A stretch of DNA of 64,000 bases from NCBI GenBank assembly GCA_902362775.1, contig CABIXV010000001.1:388654-452653 (forward strand). The letters are read 5' to 3'. Below, piece by piece: positions 1 to 23,278 of the stretch (positions are counted from its first letter, which is position 1; every line of letters begins with the position of its first letter). The notes beneath the pieces are model-generated. The model ran no database searches and had not been told where the DNA came from. It saw only the letters and a program-made list of their open reading frames with translations. The stretch is from Clostridiales bacterium. GTDB taxonomy: Bacteria > Bacillota > Clostridia > Oscillospirales > Oscillospiraceae. The translations under genes and the position numbers were made by a program.

Positions 1-2672
1 GCACGGGTCAGGGTGCTGCCGGGGGCGAACTCCCGGTCGGACACACCGGACATCAGGCCGTTGTCCAGAGCGTAGTCCACCGCCTCATGGTACCAGGCGT
101 CCTCGTCCACATCCCGGAAGCCGGCGGCGGGGCAGGTATCCTGGTGGTCGATCTCCACGAAGGAGGCCTCAATGGTCACCTTGGACCGGGGCATCTTGAA
201 GGTATACTTGCCGTCGCCCTTGTCGGTCAGCTTGATCTCGTCCCCGTTCTTGTCGGTGACGGTCAGCTCGTCCAGCTCATAGCCCTCGTCGGGCTTGACG
301 GTGATGGTCACCGTCCGGCCGCTGGAGGCGCTCTTGGGGGACACGGTCACACTGCCGTTGTCAATGTTCTTGTCCACGCTGATGGAGTAGCTGCTGGAGC
401 CGCCTCCGCCGCCGCTGCCACCGCCAGTATAGGTCCACTGGGCTACCAAGGTCACATCTTTGGTCACCTGATATTCCTTCTGCTCGATCTTTGTGCCATC
501 CTCATACCAGCCCTGGAATGTATAGCTCCCACTGCGTGTTGGGGTGGGCAGGGTGATGGTTTGATTCGCCTCCACCATCTGGGTAGGCACAGCGTTGCCG
601 CCGTTGCTGTCAAAGGTAACCGTAAACACCGCATCCGTTTTCAGATTATCCGTGTAAGTTACATCAGGCTGTATGGACACATTGACCGGGGTCTTGTTAT
701 CCTTACCAGGCTCGCCCAAAACAACGGGCCCGTATGGAGTTTCTTCTGCAGCCCCGCTGTCAACAGCGTTATTTTCGCTAAAGACACAGCCCTCTATTGT
801 CACGCCGTCCAGAGAGGCGCCATTCGTGGCATAACTACCGTCGTCACGGGCTTTGATGTGGAGCGCGGTGCCGCGATTGGCACCGTTTCCGGTAAAGGTA
901 CAGCCTGTAAAGGCGATGTCCTCATATGTGCCGTACTTCAGGTTCAGGTCCACGCCGCACATCCAGGTGGAGAAGGTTTCACTTACCTGCTCCGCGTCAT
1001 CGCCATTGTTCAAGAACTTACAATCAGTAAACGAAGAATCGGTCAGCTTTTCAAGGTAGACGCCCTTGATATAGCAGTCCTGGATGGTCAAATCATTCGC
1101 GGTGATGGAGAGAGGCTTGTCATTGGTTGTACTGCTGCTGAAATACAGGCCATAGTCAAATCCCTGGATGGTCACGTTGTTCAGCTTCAAGTCGCCAACA
1201 CCGTAGGCCATGTTATAGGTGCCCAACCCCATATAGGGCGCAGCCATGATCTCACTGGCCACATAGTCTTCGTTGGTAGTTTTGCCAGCCACAATCAGAT
1301 TCTGGATGGTGAGGGAATCCAGATCCGCTGTGATCTGCAGCGCCGCGCAGTCCTTCGCCGTCAGGGTGTTGTCCTTCCCGTCGATGACGACCGCCTTATT
1401 GATTTTAAGAGACTCAGTAATCTCCACTGGTTTCAGCAGAGTGATGATATCACCGTCCTTGGCGGCCTCCACGGCGGCCGCTAAAGTGGTGTAACCTACA
1501 TTGCCGATGGAAGCTTCGGCTTTTTCCTCATCAACAATGACCTTGCCGCTTTCGTCCTGAGTGGTGCCCTCAGGAAGATAGCCGCTCACATCTGCCTTAC
1601 CGCCGTCGGCATTCTGGAAAGTGCCGCCGGTGACGGTAATATTGTCTGCGGAGCCGTCCAGGTTCTTCTTACCTACGATGGTACCACCGGAAATAGCAGC
1701 TTGACTCTGTGCTCCCACCTTAACAGCCGCCGAACTATAGCTGGTAGTTTCGATGGTGCCGCCAGTGATGTTGACAGTATTATTATAGTCGGCGCTTATG
1801 CCATAGGCTCCAGATTTGATGCTGCCTCCTTCCACATTCAGTATGGTGGTACCTTTTACAGCGATACCAGTGCCTTTGGTCTCGATCTCGGCCTCGCCGC
1901 CAATGTTCACAGTCAGCGCATAGTCGGTGAGGATACCAGTCCCAGTCGAAGTCATCTTGCCGCCGGTCATATTAAACACGATGCTCTCCGGGTCAGTGGA
2001 ACCGCTACTGCTGACAAAGGCAGTATTAGAACCATCGTTTTCGATTAGGCCTCCGGTGATCTTGACTACGGTACCCTTGCCGCGGATGGCAAGGGTAGAA
2101 TAGCTCTGACTTTTCATCGTACCGCCGTTGATGGTAACAGTCGTATTTTGGGCAGAAGTATAAATGTCCAGAGCATCCTCTATCGCAGTGATCGTACCGC
2201 CATTCATGGTAAAGCTGCTTCCCTTCCCCTTCAGCTGTAGGGGGTAGCTGCTGGAAGCGTCCTTGATCTCAATTTTGCCGGTGCCAGCCTCAGAGCTATC
2301 TTCCAGCGTCAGAGATCCGCCATTGACCGTGATAAGGAAATAATTAGAGGCATTATAGGTGCTGGTGATACTATAGCCGTTCAGGTCCAGCACGACGGTC
2401 GTACCGCTGGCGACAGTCCAGTCCTGTTCCCCACTCACTTCAATGCTTTCGGTCAGTTTGATATTGCCGCCGCTGGTCAGAGCGGCGCCCAGGGCCTCCG
2501 CGCCGCTGACCTCAGTCCATCCATCTTCCGTGGTGTCCGGCTCCTGGCCGGACGCCTCTGTGGCCGTGGTCCCGCTGGACTGCGGGTCAACGCTTTCCTC
2601 CAGTGCCGCCGCTGGGAACATTGACAGCACCATAATCATCGCCATCAATGTGGACAACAGCTTTTTCTTCAT
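1..2672 (-). CDS. SLH-anchored beta-helix surface protein (C-terminus cut by window edge)
   Basis: The minus strand is open from an ATG at 2672 to the window edge, about 890 codons, with AGGAGG ten bases upstream. The protein starts with a lysine-rich signal peptide (residues 1-23, ending near FPAAA). From about 60 to 560 it has many short NGG/TGG turns such as TINGGTMKS and VNITGGTIE, typical of right-handed parallel beta-helix surface proteins. Around 684-744 is an InlB/Flg_new-type repeat (TFDSNGG ... GWYEDG ... LVAQW), then a Gly/Ser linker, then a repeat rich in VTVSPKSASSG-like strands. From about 838 an S-layer homology domain begins (FRDVDEDAWYHEAVDYA). It is therefore exported and probably bound non-covalently to cell-wall polymer. 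The ligand is unknown; adhesion is only a guess. Transcription appears to depend on the invertible promoter segment upstream. Confidence 0.9.
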   Translation of the reverse strand, partial: MKKKLLSTLMAMIMVLSMFPAAALEESVDPQSSGTTATEASGQEPDTTEDGWTEVSGAEALGAALTSGGNIKLTESIEVSGEQDWTVASGTTVVLDLNGYSITSTYNASNYFLITVNGGSLTLEDSSEAGTGKIEIKDASSSYPLQLKGKGSSFTMNGGTITAIEDALDIYTSAQNTTVTINGGTMKSQSYSTLAIRGKGTVVKITGGLIENDGSNTAFVSSSGSTDPESIVFNMTGGKMTSTGTGILTDYALTVNIGGEAEIETKGTGIAVKGTTILNVEGGSIKSGAYGISADYNNTVNITGGTIETTSYSSAAVKVGAQSQAAISGGTIVGKKNLDGSADNITVTGGTFQNADGGKADVSGYLPEGTTQDESGKVIVDEEKAEASIGNVGYTTLAAAVEAAKDGDIITLLKPVEITESLKINKAVVIDGKDNTLTAKDCAALQITADLDSLTIQNLIVAGKTTNEDYVASEIMAAPYMGLGTYNMAYGVGDLKLNNVTIQGFDYGLYFSSSTTNDKPLSITANDLTIQDCYIKGVYLEKLTDSSFTDCKFLNNGDDAEQVSETFSTWMCGVDLNLKYGTYEDIAFTGCTFTGNGANRGTALHIKARDDGSYATNGASLDGVTIEGCVFSENNAVDSGAAEETPYGPVVLGEPGKDNKTPVNVSIQPDVTYTDNLKTDAVFTVTFDSNGGNAVPTQMVEANQTITLPTPTRSGSYTFQGWYEDGTKIEQKEYQVTKDVTLVAQWTYTGGGSGGGGGSSSYSISVDKNIDNGSVTVSPKSASSGRTVTITVKPDEGYELDELTVTDKNGDEIKLTDKGDGKYTFKMPRSKVTIEASFVEIDHQDTCPAAGFRDVDEDAWYHEAVDYALDNGLMSGVSDREFAPGSTLTR

Positions 2673-2703
2673 GTTTTTTCTCCTCCTCTTCTGTCCAAAT
2701 TGG

Positions 2704-2723
2704 ACTAAATGATTATTTTGCGG
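2704..2723 (+). repeat. Third copy of the recombinase-site-like repeat
   Basis: This is a degenerate copy of the 20-bp repeats at 2757-2776 and 2996-3015, with core AAATGATTATTTTG. It lies in the leader of the surface-protein gene in the same orientation as the left repeat. It could be a second recombination site or an accessory binding site for the recombinase. Confidence 0.6.
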
Positions 2724-2756
2724 TGACTCTTGCTGTTGACATATGCCTATTGTGTA

Positions 2757-2776
2757 ACAAAATGATTATTTGGTCA
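2757..2776 (+). repeat. Left inverted repeat of putative invertible promoter segment
   Basis: The sequence is ACAAAATGATTATTTGGTCA. It matches the reverse complement of 2996-3015 at 19 of 20 positions. The repeat is itself a dyad (arms around a GATT centre), as expected for a site bound by two recombinase monomers. Confidence 0.8.
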
Positions 2777-2811
2777 CACATCCGCTAACAGAGCCGACCA
2801 TCCATGGCATT

Positions 2812-2840
2812 ATTGTAGCGCACTCCAAAAGAGAATGCAA
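2812..2840 (-). promoter_or_regulatory. Promoter inside invertible segment, facing the SLH gene
   Basis: On the minus strand, TTGCAT (2840-2835) and TACAAT (2817-2812) are separated by exactly 17 bases. Transcription would start near 2805 and give a leader of about 130 bases crossing two repeat copies before the SLH gene start codon. Confidence 0.7.
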
Positions 2841-2995
2841 GTTTAACAGTATAAAAACCGGACCGTATGAGAATTTTTTCTCCGACGGCTTAACTTTCAT
2901 ACACATTTTTCCAATTTTTTCCTTGATTTTCCTTTTCCTCTTTAAGTACGGGAGAAAAATGTCTGACCTAAATCGCTTTCCGGTGGCTTTCCTAT

Positions 2996-3015
2996 TGACA
3001 AAATAATCATTTTGT
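2996..3015 (-). repeat. Right inverted repeat of putative invertible promoter segment
   Basis: Read on the minus strand this is ACAAAATGATTATTTTGTCA. With one flanking base it forms a perfect 8+8 dyad, GACAAAAT-AATC-ATTTTGTC. It ends at the base next to the recombinase stop codon (3016-3018), so the site is physically fused to the recombinase gene. Confidence 0.8.
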
Positions 3016-3861
3016 CTAGCAGACCAGACGGAGCCGGTCCAGGGTTCGGATGTGTTCCGCCCCGGAGGTCAGCAGATAGATGCGCGTCGTTTCGATGCTG
3101 GAGTGGCCCAGCACATCAGCCAGTTTGACGATATCCCCACAGGCCCGGTAAAAGACGGTGGCAAATAGGTGCCGCAGGTTGTGGGGAAAGACCTTGGACG
3201 GCTCCACCCCGGCATGATGGCACAGGTTCTTCATCTCTGACCATATCTGTTTTCTGGACAGGCTTTTGCCGCCGCCGGTGCGAAACACCTCGCCGGAGGC
3301 GATTTTTTCTTTTCGGGCATATTTTAGAAGCTTGCGGCACAGCTTGCCCGGAAGCAGAATGGTGCGGATCTTCCCCTTTAGGGATATCTCGGCCCGGCCG
3401 CTCCGGGCGGCCTCCACGGTGAGATAGCGGACCTCAGACACCCGGACCCCGGTGGCCCCTATGGTTTCCAGTACCAGGGCAAGGCGCTCCCGTCCCAGCA
3501 GGCGGGCCGTTTCGATCAGGTGTTCATACTCCTCCCGCGTCAGCTCCCGGGAAGGGTCACGGAATGCCCGCCGCTGGACACGCAGCGCCTTCACCCGGCA
3601 CTCCTGCCAACCAAAGTAGGAAAAGAAGCTGTTGAGCGCGGACAACATTCCATTTATAGTGGCCGGAGCGTAGCGGCAGGACACCAGATGCTCCTTCCAT
3701 TCGACTGCCTTCTCTCTGGTCACGGCACGTCCGGCCAGCCATAATACAAAGCGGTCTACATTTCGCAGATAGTTTTCGACGGTACCGGGGGCGCGCTCCT
3801 CCTCCCTCAGATGCTCGCCATACCTGGCAATCTGTTCGGCTGTGATTGTGTGAGCATTCAT
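3016..3861 (-). CDS. Tyrosine site-specific recombinase (phase-variation invertase candidate)
   Basis: This 281-residue protein is of the XerC/XerD/phage-integrase family, which cuts and rejoins DNA through a catalytic tyrosine. It has an N-terminal SAM-like core-binding domain (about 5-90) and a catalytic domain. All catalytic residues are visible: Arg140 (TGVRVSE), Lys164 (LKGKIRT), His227-x-x-Arg230 (PHNLRH), His253 (LGHSS) and Tyr262 (TTRIYL). I chose the ATG at 3861 over the upstream one at 3879 because GGGAGGG sits seven bases before it. The gene ends at the right inverted repeat, in the same direction as the surface-protein gene, so its most likely job is inverting the 2757-3015 promoter segment. 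An unrelated integrase role is possible but no other site is seen nearby. Confidence 0.9.
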   Translation of the reverse strand: MNAHTITAEQIARYGEHLREEERAPGTVENYLRNVDRFVLWLAGRAVTREKAVEWKEHLVSCRYAPATINGMLSALNSFFSYFGWQECRVKALRVQRRAFRDPSRELTREEYEHLIETARLLGRERLALVLETIGATGVRVSEVRYLTVEAARSGRAEISLKGKIRTILLPGKLCRKLLKYARKEKIASGEVFRTGGGKSLSRKQIWSEMKNLCHHAGVEPSKVFPHNLRHLFATVFYRACGDIVKLADVLGHSSIETTRIYLLTSGAEHIRTLDRLRLVC

Positions 3862-3912
3862 ACTAAGCCCTCCCATCAAAGTAATATTCCTATTTTAACT
3901 TGATGAGGCGCT

Positions 3913-3942
3913 GTTATACGCTCTTATGTTCCCTTTTGTGAA
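3913..3942 (-). promoter_or_regulatory. Possible promoter for the tyrosine recombinase
   Basis: On the minus strand TTCACA is followed 18 bases later by TATAAC, about 50 bases before the recombinase start. Both hexamers are imperfect, so this is tentative. Confidence 0.35.
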
Positions 3943-3994
3943 GGCTAAAAAGTGATCAGACAGCAGGCTGCCGGCCCTTGCCCGCTCTCAAAAA

Positions 3995-4027
3995 CGCCCC
4001 GCCTTGGCTTTTTGCCAAGGCGGGGCG
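3995..4027. terminator. Strong intrinsic hairpin between recombinase and pyr operon
   Basis: A perfect 14-bp GC-rich stem (CGCCCCGCCTTGGC and its complement) closes a five-base loop. The T-run follows it on the minus strand. It could insulate the recombinase from antisense transcription. No minus-strand gene lies immediately upstream of it. Confidence 0.75.
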
Positions 4028-4087
4028 CTTCTACAAAGCTCTGCGTGCCTGGCGACCTCCCCGCTCCAAATTTAATTGTAAAATCCG

Positions 4088-4116
4088 TTGCGAAATTTTG
4101 CGCCTTCCGCTATAAT
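4088..4116 (+). promoter_or_regulatory. Promoter of the pyr operon
   Basis: TTGCGA (4088-4093) and a perfect TATAAT (4111-4116) are 17 bases apart, 80 bases upstream of pyrC. Confidence 0.75.
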
Positions 4117-4136
4117 TTACAGTTAGATAGATATGC

Positions 4137-4154
4137 GTTTCGGCGCGCCGAAAC
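4137..4154. promoter_or_regulatory. Perfect 18-bp palindrome in pyr leader
   Basis: GTTTCGGCGCGCCGAAAC is a perfect palindrome about 15 bases after the predicted transcription start. It could be a repressor operator or a small RNA hairpin. No PyrR-type binding loop or T-run terminator is evident in the leader. Confidence 0.5.
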
Positions 4155-4195
4155 AACACGGCTGAAAAATAGCTTTTCATTTCCGGAGGGACCTC

Positions 4196-5473
4196 ATGAA
4201 ACTTTTAATCAAAAACGGGCGGGTGGTCCACCCTGTGACCTCCGCCGTCATACTTCAGGATATCCTGATTGAGGACGGAAAGATCGTCCTGATTGAGCGC
4301 GGCCTGGAGGCAGAGGCTGACCAGGTCATCGACGCCTCCGGTCTGGCCGTCTCCCCTGGCCTGGTGGATATGCATGTCCACCTCCGGGACCCCGGCCTCA
4401 CCTATAAGGAGGATATCATCACCGGCTCCAACGCGGCCGCCCGTGGCGGCATCACCGCCATGGCCTGCATGGCCAACACCAGCCCCACAGTGGACTGCCC
4501 CGAACAAGTCCAGTATGTGCTGGACAGGGCCAACCAGGGCTCCGGGGTCCAGATCTTCCCCATCGCCGCCCTGTCCAAAGGGCTCCGCGGGGAGGAGCCC
4601 ACCGATGCCGACGCGCTGAAAAAGGCGGGAGCCATAGCTCTGTCGGATGACGGGAACAATGTGGACAACGCAAATCTCATGCGAGATGTATTGATCCAAG
4701 CCGGCCAGTTGGACATTCCGGTCCTGTGCCACTGCGAGGATACCTCCATGGTGGAGGGGCGGGCAGTGAATGAGGGCAGCGTATCCCGACAGCTTTGGCT
4801 GGAGGGACGGCCCGCCATCGCCGAGGAACTGGTGGTCATGCGGGACGCCATGCTGGCCGAGGAGACCGGGGCCCACGTCCATATCTGCCATGTGTCCACC
4901 GCCCGCAGCGTGGAGATCATCCGAAAGATGAAAAAGAAGGGCATCCACATCACCTGTGAGACCTGCCCCCAATACTTCACCCTCACCGAGGACGAGGTGC
5001 TGGTCCAGGGTTCCCTGGCACGGGTCAACCCGCCCCTGCGCACCGCCCAGGATGTCAAAGGCATCATCGCCGGCCTGAAGGACGGCACCATAGACGCCAT
5101 CGCCACTGACCACGCCCCCCACTCCGCCGAGGAGAAGGCCCGCCCCCTTGTCCGGGCACCCAGCGGCATGATCGGGCTGGAGACCAGTCTGGCCATCACG
5201 CTGACCCAGTTGTACCACACGGGCAAAATGGAGCTGCCTGAGATCATCCGCCGGATGAGTACCAACCCCTCTGACATCCTCCACCTGCCAAAAGGTCGGA
5301 TGTCCCTTGGGGTAGACGGGGACCTAACCATCTTCGACCCCAATGAGGAGTGGACCGTTGATCCGGAGCGGTTCGCTTCCAAGGCCCGGAATACCCCCTT
5401 CGGCGGCTGGAAGGTCAAGGGCCGGGTGAAATATACCATTGTCAAGGGCCGGGTCATCTACCGCCAGGCCTGA
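4196..5473 (+). CDS. pyrC: Dihydroorotase
   Basis: Cytosolic zinc amidohydrolase of 425 residues that interconverts N-carbamoyl-aspartate and dihydroorotate in de novo UMP synthesis. The metal-binding signature DMHVHLRDPG (His60, His62) is present, as is the catalytic-aspartate motif ATDHAPHS near residue 304, and the length is normal for class I dihydroorotase. The start ATG at 4196 follows GGAGGG by five bases. It is the first gene of a run pyrC-pyrF-(zinc ribbon)-pyrK-pyrD in which all genes point the same way with short gaps. The adjacent step enzymes (pyrB, pyrE) are not in the window. Confidence 0.96.
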   Translation: MKLLIKNGRVVHPVTSAVILQDILIEDGKIVLIERGLEAEADQVIDASGLAVSPGLVDMHVHLRDPGLTYKEDIITGSNAAARGGITAMACMANTSPTVDCPEQVQYVLDRANQGSGVQIFPIAALSKGLRGEEPTDADALKKAGAIALSDDGNNVDNANLMRDVLIQAGQLDIPVLCHCEDTSMVEGRAVNEGSVSRQLWLEGRPAIAEELVVMRDAMLAEETGAHVHICHVSTARSVEIIRKMKKKGIHITCETCPQYFTLTEDEVLVQGSLARVNPPLRTAQDVKGIIAGLKDGTIDAIATDHAPHSAEEKARPLVRAPSGMIGLETSLAITLTQLYHTGKMELPEIIRRMSTNPSDILHLPKGRMSLGVDGDLTIFDPNEEWTVDPERFASKARNTPFGGWKVKGRVKYTIVKGRVIYRQA

Positions 5474-12607: not shown

Positions 12608-12838
12608 TCACTCCAGGTCGGACTGGCTCAACAGCTGAAGGCCCGCGGCACATTTGCGGCAGACATTTTTCCCCCGGAACGAAAAAATGTCCTTCTCACT
12701 ATCACAAAAGACGCAGGAAACCTGATACTTTCTCAAAACGATGCTGGGCCCGTCCATATAGATCTCCAGCGGATCTTTCTCCTCGATCCCCAAAGTACGG
12801 CGCAGCTCGATGGGCAGTACGACCCGGCCCAGTTCGTC
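12608..12838 (-). pseudogene. abrB-type transition-state regulator, 5' end lost at element junction
   Basis: The minus strand encodes DELGRVVLPIELRRTLGIEE, the hallmark of the AbrB/SpoVT swapped-hairpin DNA-binding domain. A C-terminal zinc-binding part follows (VSCVFCDSEKDIF ... NVCRKCAAG). The expected first dozen residues (of the MKSTGIVRKV type) are absent: the codon before Asp is a TAG stop at 12841-12839 and upstream sequence belongs to the recombinase element. Initiation at an internal ATG (12793) would lack most of the DNA-binding domain. The missing start should sit at the other end of the element, beyond the window, and precise excision would restore the gene. Confidence 0.85.
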
Positions 12839-12911
12839 CTAATGTGTCAAGTAAAACATAAAATTTTTGGTGCGCTGCACCGCTGCTTCCTGCTTGATTT
12901 TTGCGCTACCT

Positions 12912-13298
12912 TCATGCGCGTTCCCAGGTTGCCTTTAGCGCATTCAAAATATGGAAACCCGTCTCACACTCCGCAAAGGCATCGTCGGTATCATAGGGGA
13001 CGATGATTTTAACTCCGGCTTTCTGAAACTTATCAGCAAGCTGTGGGAAATCGTAATAGCTCCTCGCCAGCCTATTCAATCCACGAACGACAACGCCATC
13101 AAAGGTGTGAGCATCCAGCTGGGCGAGCAGCCTTTGAAGTTCAAAACATTCCGCAAGAACTCCTGGGGCATTATCCTTGAAAACCTCTACAACCTCATGC
13201 CCGTGCTCGTTTGACCAGCGCCTCAATTCCTGCTCTTGATACGAAATCGCATCCCCGGTGTTGTCGTTTGCAATTCGTATATATAATGCGACCCTCAT
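12912..13298 (-). CDS. Small serine-recombinase-like protein lacking the catalytic serine
   Basis: A 128-residue protein covering only the resolvase-type N-terminal domain. The start VALYIRIAND aligns with the usual YxRVSxD motif of serine recombinases, but alanine (Ala10) stands where the nucleophilic serine should be. GLNRLARSYYDFPQL corresponds to the conserved LSRxxRN helix. It overlaps the preceding recombinase gene by four bases (ATGA), so it is co-translated. It is probably not an active recombinase. A role as partner or directionality factor for the three large enzymes is inference. Confidence 0.7.
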   Translation of the reverse strand: MRVALYIRIANDNTGDAISYQEQELRRWSNEHGHEVVEVFKDNAPGVLAECFELQRLLAQLDAHTFDGVVVRGLNRLARSYYDFPQLADKFQKAGVKIIVPYDTDDAFAECETGFHILNALKATWERA

Positions 13299-14887
13299 AC
13301 AGCTTTCCTTTCTCGGTAACCTTGTCCCGCAAACAGGTCTTCAAACTTCCATCGGATTTCAATACGCTCATTGCTAAAAACTTTTACGCGGTCAATCGCT
13401 TGGTACATACTCTCCGTCAGGAGCGCCCCATCCAGATGTGTGGCATAAAGGTATTGGGACAGCTCCCGCTTGGCAGACTCTCGCGCCTCAATCTGTGTCC
13501 GTTGTGCCTGGCGCTTCAGTTCAATTTCCGTGCGCTCGCCTTGGAGGTGTTCAATTCTTATGGCCAGGGCGGCCTTTTGTTCTACAAAAGCCCCCCGATC
13601 TAAGTCGCCGTTGCGGTATGCTTCGTAGTATTGGACTTTTTGCGCTTGGCAAGCGGCAATCTCACGATCAATTTTTCCTACCATCTCTGGCCAGTTTTCA
13701 TTTGGGTGGCCGTCGCCTTGAAGCGCCAGCTCTTTTGCCCGCTCTCCGAGCAAATACAACTGGGCCTTATAGACCGGCAGCATGACGGCCTCTAAATCTG
13801 TTTTGCTCCATCGGATATTTGAGCAGGTGGCGTTTTCCTGGTATAACTGGGTGTCACACGCGAAATAGGTATCAAGGCCATGAGACTTCCTCAATTTCCT
13901 GCCACAATGCCCGCAATAGAACACTGTATCACAGGCGGGGGGAGATTTTCGCTCGGGTCTTTTTACCTCCCTTATCATGGCGTGGGCGGCGTCAAATTCT
14001 TCTTTCGTTACAAGGGCTTCGTGCGTATTTTCGGTGATGATCCATTCTTCGCGGGGGACCCGGCGCTGGTTTTTGTCGCGCATATACCGGCTCTCTCGTG
14101 TGTGATTGGTCATCACCCCGGTATATTTATCGTTTTTTAAGATGTTCAGCACAGTGATATGCGACCACATCAACTCCCGATTTTGGCACGCTGGCTTCAA
14201 ACGGTGCTGTTTATAGGCCAGTGGCGTAAGCACACCGCGGGTGTTCAATTCCTTTGCGATTTGAGAGGTGCTTTTGCCCCTGATGATTGATTGGAAAATC
14301 TCGCGGACAATGGGGGCTGTGTTTGGATCAGGCACCATTAAATGCTTGTCACCCGGGGCTTTTTGATAACCGTAGGGAACATGATTGACAAACCGCCCCT
14401 TTTTCATGCGGGAGTGCATTGCGGAACGGACCTTGATGGAAAGATCTCGGCTGTAATTTTCGTACATGAAATTGCGAAAGGCAATATCCATCCCGCCGGT
14501 TTTGCCCTCATACTGTTTGCTGTCATAGCCATCGTTGACCGCGATGACCCTGACCCCCAAAAAGGGGAAGATGTGCTCCAGATAGTCGCCCACATCCAGA
14601 TAGTTTCTGCCAAATCGAGAAAGGTCTTTGACGATGATACACTTGACCTCACCGCGCCGTGCAGCTTCGATCATCGCCTGAAACTGCGGCCGGTCCGTGT
14701 TGGTACCTGTCAGCCCATCGTCGATGAACTCTCTGATTTGAACTTCAGAAAACTCTGGATTATGCTGAACATATTCTAAAATTACCTTCCGCTGGTTGCT
14801 AATAGACTGGCTTTGGTCGGCAAGGCCATGAGCACGGTTAAAGTCCTCCAGGGAAGTCCGCAGGTAAGCGGCAGGCGTATCCGTCAT
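13295..14887 (-). CDS. Large serine recombinase 3 of 3
   Basis: A 530-residue large serine recombinase. The resolvase domain has the catalytic serine in AAYLRTSLED (Ser12) and the conserved IVKDLSRFGRNYLDVG. A recombinase domain follows (VPYGYQKAP ... GVLTPLAYK), then a zinc-ribbon region (FYCGHCGRKLRKS ... YFACDT) and a coiled-coil C-terminus. The ATG at 14887 was chosen because it lies one base after the previous stop; the longer frame overlaps that gene. It is third in a tandem operon of three. Confidence 0.92.
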   Translation of the reverse strand: MTDTPAAYLRTSLEDFNRAHGLADQSQSISNQRKVILEYVQHNPEFSEVQIREFIDDGLTGTNTDRPQFQAMIEAARRGEVKCIIVKDLSRFGRNYLDVGDYLEHIFPFLGVRVIAVNDGYDSKQYEGKTGGMDIAFRNFMYENYSRDLSIKVRSAMHSRMKKGRFVNHVPYGYQKAPGDKHLMVPDPNTAPIVREIFQSIIRGKSTSQIAKELNTRGVLTPLAYKQHRLKPACQNRELMWSHITVLNILKNDKYTGVMTNHTRESRYMRDKNQRRVPREEWIITENTHEALVTKEEFDAAHAMIREVKRPERKSPPACDTVFYCGHCGRKLRKSHGLDTYFACDTQLYQENATCSNIRWSKTDLEAVMLPVYKAQLYLLGERAKELALQGDGHPNENWPEMVGKIDREIAACQAQKVQYYEAYRNGDLDRGAFVEQKAALAIRIEHLQGERTEIELKRQAQRTQIEARESAKRELSQYLYATHLDGALLTESMYQAIDRVKVFSNERIEIRWKFEDLFAGQGYRERKAV

Positions 14888-14888
14888 G

Positions 14889-16583
14889 CTATGCCACCTC
14901 GCTTTCCACAGCCTTGCAGTGCGCCCGGATGCGAGATAATTCATCCTGGAACAAGAACGAGACTTTGATGGAGCCGTCAGCGGACAGCCGGATCTCACTG
15001 ATAAATGCTGTGACCAATTCTCTGGACACGATTTCAGCACTTTTGTATTGTTCAATCAGAGCCATCCAGCTTTTAGCACAATCCGACACTTGGCTTGTAA
15101 GGGTAAGCCGCTCTTGGAGCTGGCTGATCCGCCCCTGTAAGGCAGCTACTTCTTCCTGGTATTTGCCACGGGCAAATGTGTATTCCTCCCGCGTCAGAAG
15201 CCCCGTCCGATAATCGGCATAAAGCGATGTCGCATACCCTTGTTTCCGCTTAACTTGCTGTTCGAGCTGCTGCAATTCATTTTCTTCGGTATGGGCAGGG
15301 AACTTCGGTTGTTTCTTTGATAGCCGCTCCAGCACTTGTTGCGCATCGCAAAAGAGCTCCATCTGTATTTTCAGTGTCTTTAACACCATGGCATCTAAAG
15401 CGTTACTGCGTATCGTCTTTTTGGTGCATCGCAGTTCCTGATGTTCCTCGTAGGTGGGGCAGATATAAGTGAAGTAGGCCTTTTTATGGTTTTTGCTTAG
15501 ATTGCGATATAGCTTCATTTGTGTCCCGCAGTCCGCACAGACCAGTCTTTCCCGATAGGGGTTATCACCCTTGGGGAGGTGGCTGCAGGCTCCATAATTG
15601 GCATTATAGGCATCTGCCCGCGAACGGTTGATTTCTTGTACCTGATTGAAAAGCTCCTCGGTAATAATCGGATCATGCGTATGGTAGGCAATATCCCATT
15701 CAGACTCCGGTGTGCGATGGACGGGTATGCCGCGGGCCAGACTTGCCGTACATTTTCCTTGAGCCAAGTGTCCGATATAGACAATGTTGCGGAGAATATC
15801 GGTGAGTGCATGGCGATTCCACAGAAGAGAGCTGCCTTTTTTGTTGTTATTGGTAACAATCCCGTGTTCAAACCGATAGCGGCCCGGCGATGGAATACCA
15901 CGCTCATTGAGCATTCGTGTGATTGTCCCGTATCCGAGCCCTTCGGCGCGCCATTGATAAATCTGCTGGATGACCGGCGCGGTTTCAGGGTTGATAATCA
16001 GGTGGTTTTTGTTTGAGGGGTCTTTCAGATAGCCGTGAGGGGCATAGCTACCGATATATTCTCCTCTTTGCCGTTTGGCTTTTAAGGCGCTGCCAGATTT
16101 CAGGGAAATATCTTTTGCATAGTAGTCATTTACGATATTTTTCAGAGACGCGGCAAATTCGTCCTGTGATTTGATCTCCGCCGTATCATAGTTATCGTTC
16201 ACCGAGATGAAGCGGATACCCAGCTTTGGACAAATCCGTTCCAAAAAACGGCCCGTCTCAATATAGTTGCGGCCCAAGCGGGAAAGGTCCTTGACGATAA
16301 TGCAGTTAATCCGCCCGGACTTAACATCCGCCATCATTCGCTCCCAGTTCGGACGATCAAAATTTGTCCCAGTATAACCGTTGTCGATATACCGCTCTAC
16401 GATCTTCAATTCCGGATGACCGGCGACATACTGCTCTATGATGGCGATCTGGCTTTCAATCGGCTCCCCATCCACTTTGCCGTTGTCCAGCACGGATAGG
16501 CGGCCATAAAGCCCGGCGACCCATAAAGCCCCTTGGATCTCCGGGCGCATGGGGGATGCGTGGACTCTTTTCTTCCTGGCCAT
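14889..16583 (-). CDS. Large serine recombinase 2 of 3
   Basis: A 564-residue large serine recombinase with catalytic serine in GLYGRLSVLD (Ser30), the motif IVKDLSRLGRNYIETG and the recombinase-domain PHGYLKDPSNKN. A zinc ribbon (LVCADCGTQMKL ... YICPTYEEH) and a C-terminal coiled coil follow. The ATG at 16583 has AAAGGAGG about ten bases upstream. A TTG at 16589, overlapping the previous stop as TTGA, is an equally possible start. Enzymes of this group integrate and excise elements at short att sites. Confidence 0.92.
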   Translation of the reverse strand: MARKKRVHASPMRPEIQGALWVAGLYGRLSVLDNGKVDGEPIESQIAIIEQYVAGHPELKIVERYIDNGYTGTNFDRPNWERMMADVKSGRINCIIVKDLSRLGRNYIETGRFLERICPKLGIRFISVNDNYDTAEIKSQDEFAASLKNIVNDYYAKDISLKSGSALKAKRQRGEYIGSYAPHGYLKDPSNKNHLIINPETAPVIQQIYQWRAEGLGYGTITRMLNERGIPSPGRYRFEHGIVTNNNKKGSSLLWNRHALTDILRNIVYIGHLAQGKCTASLARGIPVHRTPESEWDIAYHTHDPIITEELFNQVQEINRSRADAYNANYGACSHLPKGDNPYRERLVCADCGTQMKLYRNLSKNHKKAYFTYICPTYEEHQELRCTKKTIRSNALDAMVLKTLKIQMELFCDAQQVLERLSKKQPKFPAHTEENELQQLEQQVKRKQGYATSLYADYRTGLLTREEYTFARGKYQEEVAALQGRISQLQERLTLTSQVSDCAKSWMALIEQYKSAEIVSRELVTAFISEIRLSADGSIKVSFLFQDELSRIRAHCKAVESEVA

Positions 16584-16585
16584 GC

Positions 16586-18250
16586 TCAACCCGCCTCCTT
16601 TTCAGCGGCGTGCTGTGTCTGCACCTGTTCCCGCAGGAACGCAATCACATCGGTCAGTTGGTCCTTGCAAAGCAAGGTGACGGTAATCTTTTTATCGGGA
16701 TAAATGTGGATTTTGTCAATCAGATTGACGACCACCGTGCGAGTGAGCTTGGCAAGATTTCGATATTGACGGAATTGAGCCAGCCACCCCGTCTGGTTGA
16801 CAAGACCAGCTCGGACGGCATCCAGCTCTGTTTTCAAACCCGAAATATCATCTTCGATGAAAGAAATCCTTTCAGAAAAGTCCTGCTTCATGTGTAGAAA
16901 CTCATCTTGGGTGATCAGCCCGTCTCGAAGATCCTCGTAAACGCTGGTTTTCAGCGTTCTATATTTGGCAATTTCAGCTTCCTGTGCAGAAATAGCCGCT
17001 TCCAGACGCATAATCTCCCGACGCTCCCAGGCCAATGCTTCAACCTGCCCCAGAGCCCGGTCTACATCCAAAATCAGTTTGATCTCAGATTGAAGTGTAG
17101 TAAGGACAGCCGTTTCCAGCTCTCGCTCCGAAATGTTCCGCCCCTCACATCCTCCCGTTTTTTTCGCTGTGGGACAGGCGTAGTAGGCATATTTTTTCCC
17201 GTTATAAGAGACGGATTTCCGCTTTGCCAGTGCGCCGCAAGTCCCGCAGAAGACACGCCCGGACAGAGGATATACCGTATCGGAGCCTGGTGCCCGACGG
17301 CCATCCTCCTGCATCAGCCGCTGCACTAATTGGAACTCCCGGGCTGGGATAATCGCCTCATGAGCGTTCTCGATACGGCTCCACTCACTCTTGTCCTTGA
17401 TGATAACTTTTTTTACTTTATAGTTTGGAGTTGTGCGGCGGCCTTGGATCAGAACACCCGTGTAGAGCTCGTTGGTCAGAATACGGATCACCGCTTTCGG
17501 ACTCCATTTGCTCCGGCTACTGGTCTGAAAGGCGGTTTTGTATTTGATCCCAATGGAGCGTTTATACTCTGACGGTGGCAGGACCCCGCGGCCGTTCAGC
17601 TTCTCAGCAATGGTGACAGGGCTCATGCCCTCAATCTTCCACTGAAAGATCTCGCGCACATATTCACCGGCCACCTCGTCTATAACCAGCTTATTTTTAT
17701 TTTCCGGGTCGCGCAGATAACCGTAAGCTGTATAATTGGCAATGAACTCGCCGTCTTGGCGACGGCTTTCAAAACTACTCCGCACCTTGATGGAGATGTC
17801 TCTGCTGTATGAGTCATTCAGGAAATTTTTTACGGGCAGAACAAGGCTGTCCCCGGTGGAATGATTTAAGCTGTCGTAGTTGTCGTTGACTGCGATAAAG
17901 CGTACACCGAGCTGAGGAAAAATCTTCTCAATGTATTTTCCTGCGTCAATGTAGTCACGACCAAACCGAGAAAGGTCTTTCACGATAACACAGTTGATTT
18001 TACCGGCCTTAACAGCTTCCATCATTCTCTGGAAGTCCGGACGATCAAAATTTGTTCCGGTATAACCGTCATCACAAAACTCCGCTACCAGCTTGATATT
18101 CGGATTTTGAGCGACAAATCGTTCGATTATAGCCCGTTGGCTGGAAATACTGTCGCTCTCCAGCTTATCATTGGATAAAGAAAAGTCGCCATCTTCCTTA
18201 GAAAGTCTAAGGTAGTCGGCGGCTTCATAAATCATATCTGCATTTAGCAT
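16586..18250 (-). CDS. Large serine recombinase 1 of 3
   Basis: A 554-residue large serine recombinase with catalytic serine in ADYLRLSKED (Ser17), the motif IVKDLSRFGRDYIDAG, a recombinase domain (YGYLRDPENKNK), a zinc ribbon (FCGTCGALAKR ... YYACPT) and a long coiled coil (about 390-480). It is the first gene of the minus-strand integrase operon. AGGAGCGG lies just before its ATG. The three recombinases share architecture but are clearly diverged, so this is an old tandem set rather than a recent duplication. Confidence 0.92.
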   Translation of the reverse strand: MLNADMIYEAADYLRLSKEDGDFSLSNDKLESDSISSQRAIIERFVAQNPNIKLVAEFCDDGYTGTNFDRPDFQRMMEAVKAGKINCVIVKDLSRFGRDYIDAGKYIEKIFPQLGVRFIAVNDNYDSLNHSTGDSLVLPVKNFLNDSYSRDISIKVRSSFESRRQDGEFIANYTAYGYLRDPENKNKLVIDEVAGEYVREIFQWKIEGMSPVTIAEKLNGRGVLPPSEYKRSIGIKYKTAFQTSSRSKWSPKAVIRILTNELYTGVLIQGRRTTPNYKVKKVIIKDKSEWSRIENAHEAIIPAREFQLVQRLMQEDGRRAPGSDTVYPLSGRVFCGTCGALAKRKSVSYNGKKYAYYACPTAKKTGGCEGRNISERELETAVLTTLQSEIKLILDVDRALGQVEALAWERREIMRLEAAISAQEAEIAKYRTLKTSVYEDLRDGLITQDEFLHMKQDFSERISFIEDDISGLKTELDAVRAGLVNQTGWLAQFRQYRNLAKLTRTVVVNLIDKIHIYPDKKITVTLLCKDQLTDVIAFLREQVQTQHAAEKEAG

Positions 18251-18325
18251 AGCTACCGCTCCTGTCGAGATATTGACGGCCAGGCCATCATGACGACTGG
18301 AGTTTCACTGATTTTGTCCATGCTC

Positions 18326-18354
18326 AGTTTACCACAGCGGGTCAAAAAAGTCCA
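18326..18354 (-). promoter_or_regulatory. Possible promoter of integrase operon
   Basis: On the minus strand TGGACT and TAAACT are 17 bases apart, about 75 bases before the first recombinase gene. Confidence 0.35.
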
Positions 18355-18375
18355 GCCGCATTTTCAGGTAAATCC

Positions 18376-18600
18376 TCACAGGAGCGACAGCATATCAGCA
18401 AAGCAGTCGTTTAGGGTTGGACCACCCTCTGTATAGGCCACATTGACAACAACATCTCCCACTCTGAAGCAGTAGGGATTTTTGATTTGCTGAAGAAATG
18501 ACTGGATGCGTTCCGCTTGTCCCAAGCTGCTATCCAGCTTTACATCACGAATATCAACCAGTTCGTCGATGCTTTTATCAACCTGATGTTTTTCTGCCAT
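18376..18600 (-). CDS. Small DUF6870-like protein
   Basis: A 74-residue protein beginning MAEKHQVDKSIDELVDIRDV. It resembles small proteins annotated DUF6870 that are frequent in Clostridia mobile elements (recalled, not searched). GGTGAGG lies just before the ATG at 18600, which is preferred over the upstream in-frame start. It lies between the integrase operon and cassette 1. Its function is unknown. Confidence 0.6.
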   Translation of the reverse strand: MAEKHQVDKSIDELVDIRDVKLDSSLGQAERIQSFLQQIKNPYCFRVGDVVVNVAYTEGGPTLNDCFADMLSLL

Positions 18601-18676
18601 GACCTCACCGCCTTGCAATCATTATTTCCAAGTTTTGGGCAATTATTCTAACGAAACGATAGCCCGTGGACATAGG

Positions 18677-18710
18677 AATAGGGACCGCCGGAATTACGGC
18701 GATCCCTATT
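18677..18710. terminator. Hairpin downstream of cassette 1
   Basis: AATAGGGA and TCCCTATT pair around an inner CGCCG/CGGCG stem with one mismatch. There is no T-run on either strand, so Rho-independent termination is uncertain. It marks the end of the minus-strand cassette 1 operon. Confidence 0.45.
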
Positions 18711-18833
18711 TGTTCACACTGACATGATAACAGAAATAAATGATACTTACAAGCCCGTACCCTCTGCTCATTTTCTTTCAGGTAAATGGCAATCAATCTG
18801 CATAGATTGTTGAACTTACTCTTTCCCGCGCAC

Positions 18834-19250
18834 CTAATCCGCAGAAGGCAGCTCGAACTTGTAGCCGCTGTGGGGGACGGTACGGATCGGGTTTCCCGGT
18901 CCCATCTTCCGGCGGAGCTGGCTGATGATGTTGACCACGGCCGCGCCGCAGTCCTCCGGGAACTCGTGCCATACGGCCTCGTAAATCTGCTCCTGTGTAA
19001 AAATCCAGCCGGGGTGCCGGGCCAGATAAGCCAGCGTGAAGAACTCCAGGTGCGTAAGGTGGAGAGGCTGGCCCTGCCACTTTACCGTCTGCTTGCGCAG
19101 GTGCAGCTCCAGGCCGGGAATGGTGAGGGTGTGCTTTGCGGCGGGCGGCTCCACGACCTCGATTCCAGGCTCTTCCGCCAGGAAGTCCTTGATCCTATCC
19201 AGAATTTGTTCCTCGCCATTGGTGACGGATAAAATCAGCAATTTCCCCAC
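18834..19250 (-). CDS. OmpR-type winged-helix regulator without receiver (cassette 1)
   Basis: A 138-residue protein. Residues from about 45 form an OmpR/PhoB-type winged helix (LHLTHLEFFTLAYLARHPG ... IRTVPHSGYKFELP). The first 40 residues (MGKLLILSVTNGEEQILD) look like a remnant of a receiver and lack the phospho-acceptor region. It is over 85% identical by eye to the protein at 50348-50758, which is in the opposite orientation. It is the last gene of cassette 1, just after the DtxR-like gene, so it may help control metal-uptake genes. Confidence 0.8.
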   Translation of the reverse strand: MGKLLILSVTNGEEQILDRIKDFLAEEPGIEVVEPPAAKHTLTIPGLELHLRKQTVKWQGQPLHLTHLEFFTLAYLARHPGWIFTQEQIYEAVWHEFPEDCGAAVVNIISQLRRKMGPGNPIRTVPHSGYKFELPSAD

Positions 19251-19284
19251 GCGGGGTCCTCCCTTTCTTCTGACTGCTTACCGG

Positions 19285-19662
19285 TCATTCCGGCTCCACC
19301 GCCCCTTTTAACAATTCAAAGGACCGCTGGCTGATGGTGTGCTCCATCCGGCAAGCCTCCCGTTCCGCAGTCTGGGGATCGACACCAGCCGCGATAAGCC
19401 GGCGGGTGAAAAAACAGTGCTTCTCATAGGTCTGCTCAGCCACCTCTCGGCCTATATCGGTCAAGCGCAGGGAAAAGTCCTCGTCCATGGTGAGGAAGCC
19501 ACCGTCCTTTAGTGTTGCCACCGCATGGCACACGCTGGGCTTGGACACCTCCATATACCGGGCCACACCCACGGAGCGTACCATTCCTTTTTCCTTTTGG
19601 AGCACCAGCACGGCCTCCAAATAATCCTCGCCGGAAGCGTGCAGTTTTTTATCAGGAGGCAT
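19285..19662 (-). CDS. DtxR/MntR-like metal-dependent repressor (cassette 1)
   Basis: A 125-residue protein with the N-terminal DtxR winged helix (SGEDYLEAVLVLQKEKG, then VSKPSVCHAVATLKDGGFL) and the helical dimerisation/metal domain (CRMEHTISQRSFELL). It has no SH3-like third domain, like MntR and other short members. Family members bind Fe2+ or Mn2+ and repress metal uptake. The ATG at 19662 overlaps the end of the ecfA gene; a GTG at 19671 is an alternative. Its last 90 bases are almost identical to those of the cassette 2 copy. Confidence 0.88.
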   Translation of the reverse strand: MPPDKKLHASGEDYLEAVLVLQKEKGMVRSVGVARYMEVSKPSVCHAVATLKDGGFLTMDEDFSLRLTDIGREVAEQTYEKHCFFTRRLIAAGVDPQTAEREACRMEHTISQRSFELLKGAVEPE

Positions 19663-21154
19663 TGACCGCACCTGTTTCTTGCTCGTGGGAGAAGAAAGCC
19701 CGCAAGAGCTTCACAGCTTCCCCATCCATTGGCCGATGCCACAGCACCTTGCTCCCCTGAATGAACAACAGGTAGGTGCAGCATTTATAAATGAGTTCCG
19801 GGTCATGCGTGATCAGAAACAGGCTCTTTCCCATCTCTTTCAAGCGGTTTAAGTTGTCCGACACCTCCAGCATATGCCGGTAATCCAATCCACTGGTAGG
19901 CTCGTCAAATATCAGGATCTTTTTGTCCGAGGCTATTGCACTGCCAATCGCCACCCTCTGTTTTTCACCGCCGGACAGGGACATGGGGTGCAGCTTTACT
20001 TTGTCCAACAGGTCCAGGCTGTTCAGTATCTCCTTGGCGCGGGCCGTGTCAGCTTTCTCGTCCTCACCGCCCATACTGAGCAGCAATTCGTCCAGCACAT
20101 CTTCCGTAAATAGCTGGTGGTTTACATCCTGCATTACCATATAGGAGATATGCCTGCGTTGCTTCGCGTCATAGGGGGTCCCATCCATTTCAAGCACACC
20201 TTTTGCTTTTTTATCCAGACCGCACAGACACCGGGCAAAGGTAGATTTTCCCGCGCCGTTGTTTCCGATGATGCCAATGATCTCGCCTTGAGGCAGGGTC
20301 AGGTCTGGAATATCCACATTGAGGGGGCCGTGCTTTTCATAGGAGAACTGGAACCCCTTGATATGTAATTTCGGAGCGGCCGGTTTGGGGGCGGCCTCTG
20401 GGGGCAGGTGGAATGGGTCCAGTGCCCGCAGCCCCATCCCCTGCAATTCATCGGGCGATAATTTTTGAAACTCCGTCCCGGTAAATTCCCGTACAATACT
20501 TCCGTGCTTCATATAAAGAATTCGATCTGCGTAGGGAACGAGATAATAAAGCCGGTGTTCCGCGACAATCACAGTCTTTTTCTCGGACTGCCAGTGCCGA
20601 ATCACACCAATCAAATCTTCGATAGTGGCAATATCCAGGTTGGAGGATGGCTCGTCCAGTACAAAGATGTCCGGGTGGATTGCGTCGGCAGAGGCACAGG
20701 CGATTTTCTGTTTTTCTCCGCCGGACAGAGCAAACAAGCTCCGATTCAGCAGCTTTTCCAGCTTGAGGCTGTGGGCAGTCTCTTCCAGGCGCTCCCGCAT
20801 CTCCGGGACTGGCAGGGCCATGTTTTCACAACCAAAAACGATCTGGCTGGTCGTATCTACATTGTAGAATTGAGTCCTTGGGTTTTGGAATACAGACCCC
20901 ACCCGTTGCCCGATTTGATAAAGAGGATAGTCTTTTAACTCTTTCCCGTCTAAAAGGACTTGCCCGGTCAGCTTCCCGCCGTAATAATGCGGGATCAGAC
21001 CGTTGACCAGCCGGGTCAGCGTCGTCTTGCCGCAGCCGGACTCTCCGCAGAGCAGGATGGTTTCGCCATCCTGGATTGTCAGATTGATATGGTTCAGGTT
21101 ATTTTGGGTTTCTCCGCTCTCATAAGTAAAGGAAACATCTTTCAATTCGATCAC
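19652..21154 (-). CDS. Two-domain ECF/CbiO-type ATPase EcfA (cassette 1)
   Basis: A 500-residue protein with two complete ABC nucleotide-binding domains in one chain. Domain 1 has Walker A GESGCGKTT, signature LSGGEKQ and Walker B IFVLDEPSS. Domain 2 (from about 265) has GNNGAGKST, LSGGEKQ and LIFDEPTSG. It would power the EcfT/S-component importer encoded next to it. It starts at GTG (21154) after a perfect AAGGAGGTGAT ribosome site. Substrate is inferred from context as a metal or metallophore. Confidence 0.92.
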   Translation of the reverse strand: MIELKDVSFTYESGETQNNLNHINLTIQDGETILLCGESGCGKTTLTRLVNGLIPHYYGGKLTGQVLLDGKELKDYPLYQIGQRVGSVFQNPRTQFYNVDTTSQIVFGCENMALPVPEMRERLEETAHSLKLEKLLNRSLFALSGGEKQKIACASADAIHPDIFVLDEPSSNLDIATIEDLIGVIRHWQSEKKTVIVAEHRLYYLVPYADRILYMKHGSIVREFTGTEFQKLSPDELQGMGLRALDPFHLPPEAAPKPAAPKLHIKGFQFSYEKHGPLNVDIPDLTLPQGEIIGIIGNNGAGKSTFARCLCGLDKKAKGVLEMDGTPYDAKQRRHISYMVMQDVNHQLFTEDVLDELLLSMGGEDEKADTARAKEILNSLDLLDKVKLHPMSLSGGEKQRVAIGSAIASDKKILIFDEPTSGLDYRHMLEVSDNLNRLKEMGKSLFLITHDPELIYKCCTYLLFIQGSKVLWHRPMDGEAVKLLRAFFSHEQETGAVNAS

Positions 21155-21166
21155 GGTATCACCTCC

Positions 21167-21898
21167 TTACCACGGACTGAAAAAGTATGTGGAGAGCAGT
21201 GCGGCTCCGGCAATCAGCACCGCCAGCAGATCCCAGCCAGTAAAACCGACCTTTGTGATATTGGTGCGCCGGACCGGGTTATCCAAGCCGCGGGTCAGGG
21301 CCGCCGCGGAGAGATCATCCCCGATTTTGACCACCGAGATCATCAGGGGAATAAAACGGTATTCAATCAGGGCGGCGGGGTTTTGCCAGAATTTCTTTGT
21401 CCCGAACTGGACCTCCCGCATCCGCATGGCGTCCTTGATGGCGGCCGACTCCTCCTGCATGGTAGGGATAAAGCGAAACAGGACGGAGAGCGGAATGGTG
21501 ATCTGCCGCCCAATGTGCATCCGGCCCAGCGCGGTAATGCACTCGCTGGCCGTGGTGGATTTGATGATGTAGGCCCCCATCACAAAGGCCGGAAAGAGCC
21601 GCAGGACCAGTCCCACCAACAGGACTACCAGCATATTGACGATCATGGGAAACTGGACGGAGTTCTGGATGGCCTGTACAAACAGCCCCGCCGCGAACAG
21701 GCAGAAGAACACCGTTGCCGTCTTATACTGCCGGTTAGTCAACAACAGGACGAAGGGAATCATCGCCACCGCGATCATAAAGGCGGTGTGGCTGTATAGA
21801 AATTCCGCGGTAGCGACAACGGCCATCAGCAGCAGCTTGGTTCGTGGGTCCAAGCAAAAGCCTGTTCTGTTTTCAACAACCGCTTGAAACTGCTCCAT
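21167..21898 (-). CDS. ECF transporter transmembrane component EcfT (cassette 1)
   Basis: A 243-residue CbiQ/EcfT-family membrane protein with about five hydrophobic segments. Two coupling motifs typical of EcfT that contact the ATPases are visible: DAMRMREVQ and ALTRGLDNP (Ala-Arg-Gly type). Its ATG overlaps the stop of the S-component gene by one base. It links the S component to the two-domain ATPase. Confidence 0.9.
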   Translation of the reverse strand: MEQFQAVVENRTGFCLDPRTKLLLMAVVATAEFLYSHTAFMIAVAMIPFVLLLTNRQYKTATVFFCLFAAGLFVQAIQNSVQFPMIVNMLVVLLVGLVLRLFPAFVMGAYIIKSTTASECITALGRMHIGRQITIPLSVLFRFIPTMQEESAAIKDAMRMREVQFGTKKFWQNPAALIEYRFIPLMISVVKIGDDLSAAALTRGLDNPVRRTNITKVGFTGWDLLAVLIAGAALLSTYFFSPW

Positions 21899-22485: not shown

Positions 22486-22569
22486 TTTTAATATGTCCTT
22501 TCTGAAAAGAATTAAGTGTTGCAAAACCCCGTGCAAAGGGGACGCTGCGGTTTCACCTCCACATCATTT

Positions 22570-22587
22570 GGTTAGTAGATGCTAACT
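22570..22587. promoter_or_regulatory. Operator-like dyad GGTTAG-N6-CTAACt (cassette 1)
   Basis: This 18-bp inverted repeat is 85 bases upstream of the S-component gene. Matching dyads with the same six-base spacing lie at 42367, 43483, 50966 and, degenerate, 54707. Confidence 0.65.
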
Positions 22588-22599
22588 ATTGCGCAAAAA

Positions 22600-22622
22600 T
22601 TTTGGGGATCAGATCCCCAAAA
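22600..22622 (-). terminator. Terminator at the 3' end of the tetR gene
   Basis: TTTTGGGGATC and its complement form an 11-bp stem around one base, followed on the minus strand by ATTTTTG. It overlaps the last codons of tetR. Confidence 0.7.
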
Positions 22623-23226: not shown

Positions 23227-23252
23227 TCGCTGTCCCTCCGTCCTATACTAAA

Positions 23253-23278
23253 ATTACACTGTAATATTACATCGTAAT
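23253..23278. promoter_or_regulatory. Palindromic operator between tetR and ABC genes
   Basis: A 26-bp near-palindrome centred on the perfect TGTAATATTACA, with ATTAC and GTAAT ends. It lies 27 bases upstream of the tetR start, a usual place for an autoregulatory TetR operator. Confidence 0.7.

What the first reader, a model, noticed from the sequence alone, without database searches (positions are those of the whole stretch)
2757..3015. Invertible promoter switch for a surface protein, seen in the ON state
Seen: 20-bp inverted repeats with 19/20 identity bound a 259-bp segment. A TTGCAT-N17-TACAAT promoter inside it faces an SLH surface-protein gene, and a complete tyrosine recombinase gene ends exactly at the right repeat. 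Known: tyrosine recombinases flip promoters of surface genes in Clostridia and Bacteroidetes. Inferred: this protein is phase-variable and the recombinase is its invertase.
Basis: partly seen in the sequence, partly recalled or inferred. Interest (0 to 1): 0.85.

Follow-up and report, generated by a model that had tools for sequence, protein, structure and literature searches.

The report
Self-contained promoter-flip switch for surface protein
A 259-base stretch bounded by mirror-image repeats and flanked by its own recombinase gene holds a predicted promoter and likely flips back and forth to switch a predicted S-layer-anchored surface protein on and off; related bacteria carry the same kind of module in both orientations.

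Summary
Observation confirmed: 19/20 inverted repeats (2757-2776, 2996-3015) bound 259 bp with a TTGCAT-17-TACAAT promoter facing an SLH surface gene, and a complete tyrosine recombinase ends at the right repeat. No such pair arose in 30 shuffles of the window.

Relatives support the interpretation. An inverted repeat starting at the recombinase stop recurs in 130 of 151 loci (13 of 755 shuffles, 0 of 95 upstream flanks). The best promoter lies 40-79 bp inside one segment end in 94 of 119 segments; orientation calls are OFF 72, ON 18, unclear 29. One genome holds two copies of a locus with identical recombinases, 99% identical downstream DNA and the 252-bp segment inverted. Flipping at the window locus itself is untested.

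The kind is known: read-verified Clostridia invertons near tyrosine recombinases (PMC11892184, passages). Less expected: within a genome 39 of 47 locus pairs have different 4-bp site cores, and in 27 of 127 loci the gene behind the switch is a recombinase paralogue that has lost catalytic residues. The window lacks that paralogue.

The parts
3..2672 (-). Surface-protein gene under the switch (890 aa seen, cut by the window start): signal-peptide-like start, Flg_new and InlB-type repeats, SLH domain
   Evidence: signal peptide judged by eye
2680..2690 (-). Shine-Dalgarno-like AAGAGGAGGAG before the ATG at 2672
   Evidence: sequence, by eye
2703..2722 (.). Site A: third copy of the recombination-site-like sequence, same orientation as site B, 54 bp from it
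   Evidence: extra copies in 7 of 85 loci, 0.42 expected from shuffles
2757..2776 (+). Site B: left inverted repeat
2757..3015 (.). Segment predicted to invert (259 bp)
   Evidence: inferred from relatives
2812..2840 (-). Predicted promoter TTGCAT-17-TACAAT, -10 end 55 bp inside the segment, facing the surface gene (ON)
2849..2902 (-). Hairpin with a U-rich 3' arm between recombinase and promoter; possible intrinsic terminator that insulates the promoter
   Evidence: -18.5 kcal/mol, z -3.85, stretch chosen after it was seen; window z -1.6; 29 of 66 segments z below -2. Not listed by the terminator scan
2996..3016 (-). Site C: right inverted repeat, abutting the recombinase stop codon
3016..3879 (-). 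Tyrosine recombinase gene, predicted invertase of this segment, catalytic R146, K170, H233, R236, H259, Y268

Best explanation
The 259-bp segment 2757-3015 is most likely an invertible promoter, predicted to be flipped by the adjacent tyrosine recombinase, that would switch a predicted S-layer-anchored surface protein on and off and is seen here in the ON arrangement. Sequence shows: two inverted near-palindromic sites with the same asymmetric GATT core, a promoter-like sequence 55 bp inside the left end pointing at the surface gene, a hairpin in the middle, and the recombinase gene ending at the right site. Relatives show that segments of this kind exist in both orientations, with an exact inversion between the repeats in one pair of otherwise nearly identical loci. 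Inferred: recombinase dimers bind the inverted half-sites of B and C, pair them, exchange strands in the core and invert the segment; in the OFF arrangement the promoter would fire into the 3' end of the recombinase gene; the central hairpin would stop recombinase read-through from reaching the surface gene in either state.
For: Repeat pair unique in the window and absent from 30 shuffles. Recombinase relatives with an inverted repeat starting at or near their stop codon: 130 of 151 loci, 13 of 755 shuffles, 0 of 95 upstream flanks; median segment 269 bp. Best promoter 40-79 bp inside one segment end in 94 of 119 segments, against 89 of 595 shuffled. Orientation: OFF 72, ON 18, unclear 29 of 119; shuffled sets average 7.8, 7.2 and 104. 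L131/L132, two loci of one single-contig genome (G378): 960 nt of recombinase region 100% identical, 252-bp segment 99.2% identical in opposite orientation, 4347 nt downstream 99.2% identical in the same orientation. L059/L066: segment 81.6% over 174 nt inverted, flanks 79% and 77% in the same orientation. All 131 recombinases aligned keep K, H, R, H and Y, and 130 keep the first R. Literature passages: inverton group 139, 32 of 33 in Clostridia, is linked to a tyrosine recombinase group, and members change orientation by read counts in Clostridium sp. D5 and Intestinimonas butyriciproducens, at 257 and 255 bp by the printed coordinates (PMC11892184).
Against: No read or second strain shows the window locus flipped; its assembly is not held. 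20 of the 151 loci gave no repeat pair under the rule; some have one at longer spacing (for example L063, L079). The promoter rule left 29 of 119 unclear, L131 and L132 among the unclear; L132's TTGCAA-17-TAGAAT was read by eye. Some of the 18 ON calls may be chance (about 7 expected in shuffles). The promoter is not listed by the 9-of-12 scan. The link between group 139 and this family is by class, size and neighbour gene only; no sequences were compared.
Confidence: 0.88

Rival explanations
1. The segment inverts, but control works through transcription termination as in C. difficile CwpV: a promoter outside the segment reads through it in one orientation and is stopped in the other.
For: A central hairpin with a U-rich arm lies in the segment, and hairpins are common there (29 of 66 with z below -2). 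CwpV is a surface protein controlled this way (PMC2784873, passages).
Against: A promoter-like sequence lies inside the segment here and at a fixed distance from one end in 94 of 119 segments. The hairpin is near the middle, so it would act in both orientations. In CwpV the segment holds no promoter and the terminator forms at the repeat junction.
Confidence: 0.05
2. A once-active switch that is now locked ON: the sites have drifted (one mismatch between arms, site A degraded) and the recombinase acts elsewhere or not at all.
For: The arms differ at one position; site A differs at 3 of 19 from the right site; the window is in the minority ON arrangement.
Against: The GATT core and its neighbours are identical in sites B and C, the recombinase frame is open and its catalytic residues are intact. 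Arms with one or more mismatches are common in the family.
Confidence: 0.05
3. The recombinase and repeats are remains of a mobile element (integrase next to its attachment site) and the promoter-like sequence is incidental.
For: The recombinase is an integrase-family protein, and part of this window from 12,753 on is mobile-type DNA.
Against: The repeats are inverted and flank about 260 bp with a positioned promoter in many genomes. The sequence matched to G001 at 100% begins about 9.7 kb away, with pyrimidine-biosynthesis-type genes in between.
Confidence: 0.02

Closest known systems
Clostridia inverton group 139 with tyrosine recombinase 'invertase group 35' (PMC11892184; passages seen)
   Same: Clostridia, about 255-257 bp segments by the printed coordinates of two examples, short inverted repeats, tyrosine recombinase nearby, orientation changes measured by reads
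   Different: Repeat and recombinase sequences could not be compared (supplements not available), so identity of the two families is likely, not shown
E. coli fimS with FimB/FimE
   Same: Promoter inside an inverted segment, tyrosine recombinase, surface structure as target (described in passages of PMC2784873 and PMC8844915)
   Different: The window recombinase is far below the cut-offs of the tyrosine-type DNA invertase models (18.9 and 18.5 bits against 222 and 221); one recombinase here; its gene ends at the site
C. difficile CwpV switch and RecV
   Same: Clostridial surface protein behind an inverted segment of about 200 bp
   Different: In CwpV the promoter lies outside the segment; RecV acts on several switches in trans, whereas here each locus has its own recombinase next to it
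C. difficile cmr switch
   Same: Promoter inside the segment in the ON orientation
   Different: Inverted by RecV; further promoters outside the segment; target is a signalling operon

Membership tests
Invertible promoter (promoter inverton) | Inverted repeats flanking a short segment | tested here: met
Invertible promoter (promoter inverton) | Promoter inside the segment facing a gene | tested here: met
   By sequence only: weighted scan; not listed by the stricter scan; activity untested
Invertible promoter (promoter inverton) | Both orientations occur at the same locus | tested here: inconclusive
   Shown for relatives L131/L132 and L059/L066, not for the window, whose assembly is not held
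Invertible promoter (promoter inverton) | A recombinase carries out the inversion | not testable with these tools
   Intact catalytic residues and position at the repeat only
Inverton group 139 / invertase group 35 | Repeat and recombinase sequence in that group | not testable with these tools
   Main-text passages only; no look-ups of supplements allowed
CwpV-type terminator switch | Promoter outside the segment | tested here: not met
   Best promoter in the segment is 2812-2840; no transcript data
FimB/FimE-type DNA invertases | NCBIfam cut-off for tyrosine-type DNA invertase models | tested here: not met
   18.9 and 18.5 bits against 222 and 221
XerC/XerD/XerA | NCBIfam equivalog cut-off | tested here: not met
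   XerA_Arch 139.9 of 220, XerD 114.4 of 329.6, XerC 100.3 of 335.15 bits; nearest solved structures by sequence are Xer-type

The most novel reading that the evidence does not exclude
The window carries the simple form of a Clostridia-wide plug-in switch cassette: a recombinase whose stop codon abuts its own crossover site, a central insulating hairpin and a promoter at a fixed distance from one end. Each cassette has its own short core sequence, which would keep switches in one genome from recombining with each other. In an advanced form, the first gene made in the ON state is a catalytically dead recombinase paralogue that would feed back on flipping, giving the switch a built-in memory or directionality.
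Probability: 0.4. Interest if true: 0.75.

Novelty: new member of a known kind. Interest (0 to 1): 0.5.

Why it matters
If it flips, part of the population would display a large S-layer-anchored, repeat-rich surface protein and part would not, which bears on phage attack, immune recognition and adhesion in gut Clostridia, where few switches have been worked out beyond C. difficile (that last judgement is recalled). The family makes general questions testable: whether the short core alone keeps several switches in one genome apart (G364 has six loci with six different cores), and what a recombinase paralogue without catalytic residues does when made only in the ON state.

Tried and rejected
Same locus in the nearest genomes: G001 matches the window's pyrimidine genes at only about 71% and its best recombinase match is 32%; only 2 of 16 genus genomes had a match at E 1e-50 or better, so no flipped orthologue of the window locus was found. 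Near-identical pairs such as L008/L096 and L009/L095 gave the same orientation and are probably the same record held twice.

Contig breaks as evidence of mixed orientation: 11 of 80 contigs end within 280 nt after the recombinase match against 3 of 80 that begin within 300 nt before it (hand counts; Fisher p 0.047). But one of the 11 (L082) ends inside the gene and two (L034, L080) are near-identical copies of one genome, so I give it no weight; L006, L031 and L068 do end at a site copy. L100's 90-nt arms look like a contig-end artefact and were left out of the promoter census.

Hairpin as a conserved terminator: only 29 of 66 segments reach z below -2, median -1.8 (18 of 84 unclear segments dropped); kept as likely, not shown. 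Private cores: 39 of 47 within-genome pairs differ, yet sharing within genomes (8 of 47) exceeds that of random loci (2%), at least partly through near-copies (L131/L132, and L029/L039/L051 with segments 80-83% alike); core calls in weakly palindromic sites are unreliable, and the genomes were those I had fetched several loci from. Site A as a second crossover point (314-bp inversion, or 54-bp deletion with B): possible, untested.

Downstream-gene tally used the longest open frame within 800 nt; several of the 90 look spurious by eye.

Full report
What is there. Reading the window on the minus strand, the order is: tyrosine recombinase (3879-3016), site C (2996-3016, abutting the recombinase stop codon), hairpin (2902-2849), promoter TTGCAT-17-TACAAT (2840-2812), site B (2776-2757), site A (2722-2703), Shine-Dalgarno-like sequence (2690-2680) and the surface-protein gene (2672 to beyond the window start). 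Each is itself a near-palindrome, ACAAAAT-GATT-ATTTTGT, the shape of a tyrosine-recombinase site with two inverted half-sites around an asymmetric core. No pair of this quality appeared in 30 shuffles of the window.

The proteins. The surface protein has Flg_new, InlB-type repeat and SLH domains and a signal-peptide-like start (by eye). The recombinase has the SAM-like and Phage_integrase domains, matches Xer-type proteins best by sequence but reaches no NCBIfam cut-off, and keeps the R, K, H, R, H, Y set.

Relatives. A scan of one genome per species found 99 relatives, of which the best 80 were kept. Searches of 16 genus and 400 family genomes round G001 gave matches in 2 and 71 (E 1e-50 and 1e-90; in most rows not all first-look candidates were scored, so this is a lower bound). 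I fetched 71 further stretches. After removing records with identical recombinase and flank, 169 loci remained; 18 had under 330 nt downstream, 131 of the other 151 have an inverted repeat beginning near the recombinase stop and closing 150-420 nt later, and 20 do not. With controls the count is 130 of 151 against 13 of 755 shuffles and 0 of 95 upstream flanks. The median segment is 269 bp. Among the 131, 128 segments are unique, so a few duplicates remain.

Orientation. For 119 unique segments of 200-330 bp (9 others dropped for length), the best promoter on either strand ends 40-79 bp from a segment end in 94, against 89 of 595 shuffled segments. With a score and margin rule, 72 point away from the downstream gene, 18 towards it and 29 are unclear; shuffled sets average 7.8, 7.2 and 104. 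The promoter weights are recalled, not fitted.

Direct evidence of inversion. In G378, a genome held as one contig, L131 and L132 share 960 nt of recombinase region at 100%, then a 252-bp segment at 99.2% in opposite orientation, then 4347 nt at 99.2% in the same orientation. The switch points lie in the repeats. The census rule left both unclear; by eye L132 has TTGCAA-17-TAGAAT facing the next gene. L059 and L066, from two assemblies, show the same with 81.6% identity over 174 nt. This proves flipping over evolutionary time in the family, not in the window strain.

Hairpin. The window's hairpin folds at -18.5 kcal/mol, z -3.85, on a stretch chosen after it was seen; in the blind scan its z is -1.6, and 29 of 66 segments are below -2. 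In many loci it is a G+C-rich stem flanked by A and T runs, which suggests a bidirectional terminator that keeps recombinase transcripts out of the switched gene; this is inference.

Extra sites. Seven of 85 loci tested, the window among them, carry an additional site copy near an arm; 0.42 expected from shuffles.

Cores. The 131 sites show 65 different 4-nt cores. Among genomes with several fetched loci, 39 of 47 pairs differ and 8 agree, some of the latter being near-copies; random loci agree in 2%. G364 has six loci with six cores. Since strand exchange needs matching cores (recalled), different cores would insulate the switches.

What is switched. Of 90 downstream open frames (window included), 9 have SLH, 9 Flg_new, 13 DUF4379 and 15 an integrase SAM-like domain. 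In 27 of 127 loci with at least 900 nt downstream, the first gene is a recombinase paralogue (38-49% identical to L132's copy in the other loci, the identical L131 copy aside; 33% to the window recombinase). Its catalytic columns are mostly lost: first R kept in 9 of 27, K 3, H 0, R 18, H 1, Y 2, against 130-131 of 131 in the adjacent recombinases. Surface or polysaccharide-type genes follow in the examples read by eye. I saw no report of such a paralogue in the listings; those papers were not opened, and the library holds open-licence papers only. The window has no such paralogue between switch and surface gene.

Known or new. PMC11892184 (passages) describes inverton group 139, 32 of 33 in Clostridia, with a linked tyrosine recombinase group, and measures orientation changes in Clostridium sp. 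D5 and Intestinimonas butyriciproducens; L013 is from another strain of the latter species. The match is by class, size and neighbour, not by sequence. CwpV (PMC2784873, passages) and cmr (PMC8844915, passages) are the nearest worked-out clostridial switches. Jiang and others 2019 (PhaseFinder) is recalled; it is not held. The window locus is therefore a new member of a known kind; the dead paralogue and private cores are the less expected parts, and they come from relatives.

Noticed in passing
L131 2549-3412 region (complement), L132:2928-3791, and 25 other relative loci: The first gene behind the invertible promoter is a tyrosine-recombinase paralogue that has lost most catalytic residues; it would be made only in the ON state. 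Coordinates for L131 as used are 3590-4453 on the minus strand.
   Followed up: partly
window 12753-27900 (at least): 100% identical over 15,148 bp to G001, although the chromosomal pyrimidine genes differ by about 29%; carries three large serine recombinases and ABC transporters, so likely a recently transferred mobile element.
   Followed up: partly
window 2736-2763: A second promoter-like sequence, TTGACA-16-CAAAAT, plus strand, overlaps site B and points into the segment.
   Followed up: no
window 3992-4030: A 17-nt near-perfect hairpin with A/T flanks lies between the recombinase and the dihydroorotase-like gene; terminator-like by eye.
   Followed up: no
L063, after the recombinase: First 142 nt of segment identical to L065, but the second repeat lies about 1.75 kb away instead of 0.26 kb, as if something had inserted into the invertible segment.
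   Followed up: no
L027, L039, L051, L060, L092 downstream genes; L013, L032, L045, L049, L094 downstream genes: Other recurrent targets of the switch: short LTGQRFGKLTV proteins (AP2-domain hits in 3 of 90) and DUF4379 zinc-finger proteins (13 of 90). Why such genes should be phase-variable is unclear.
   Followed up: no
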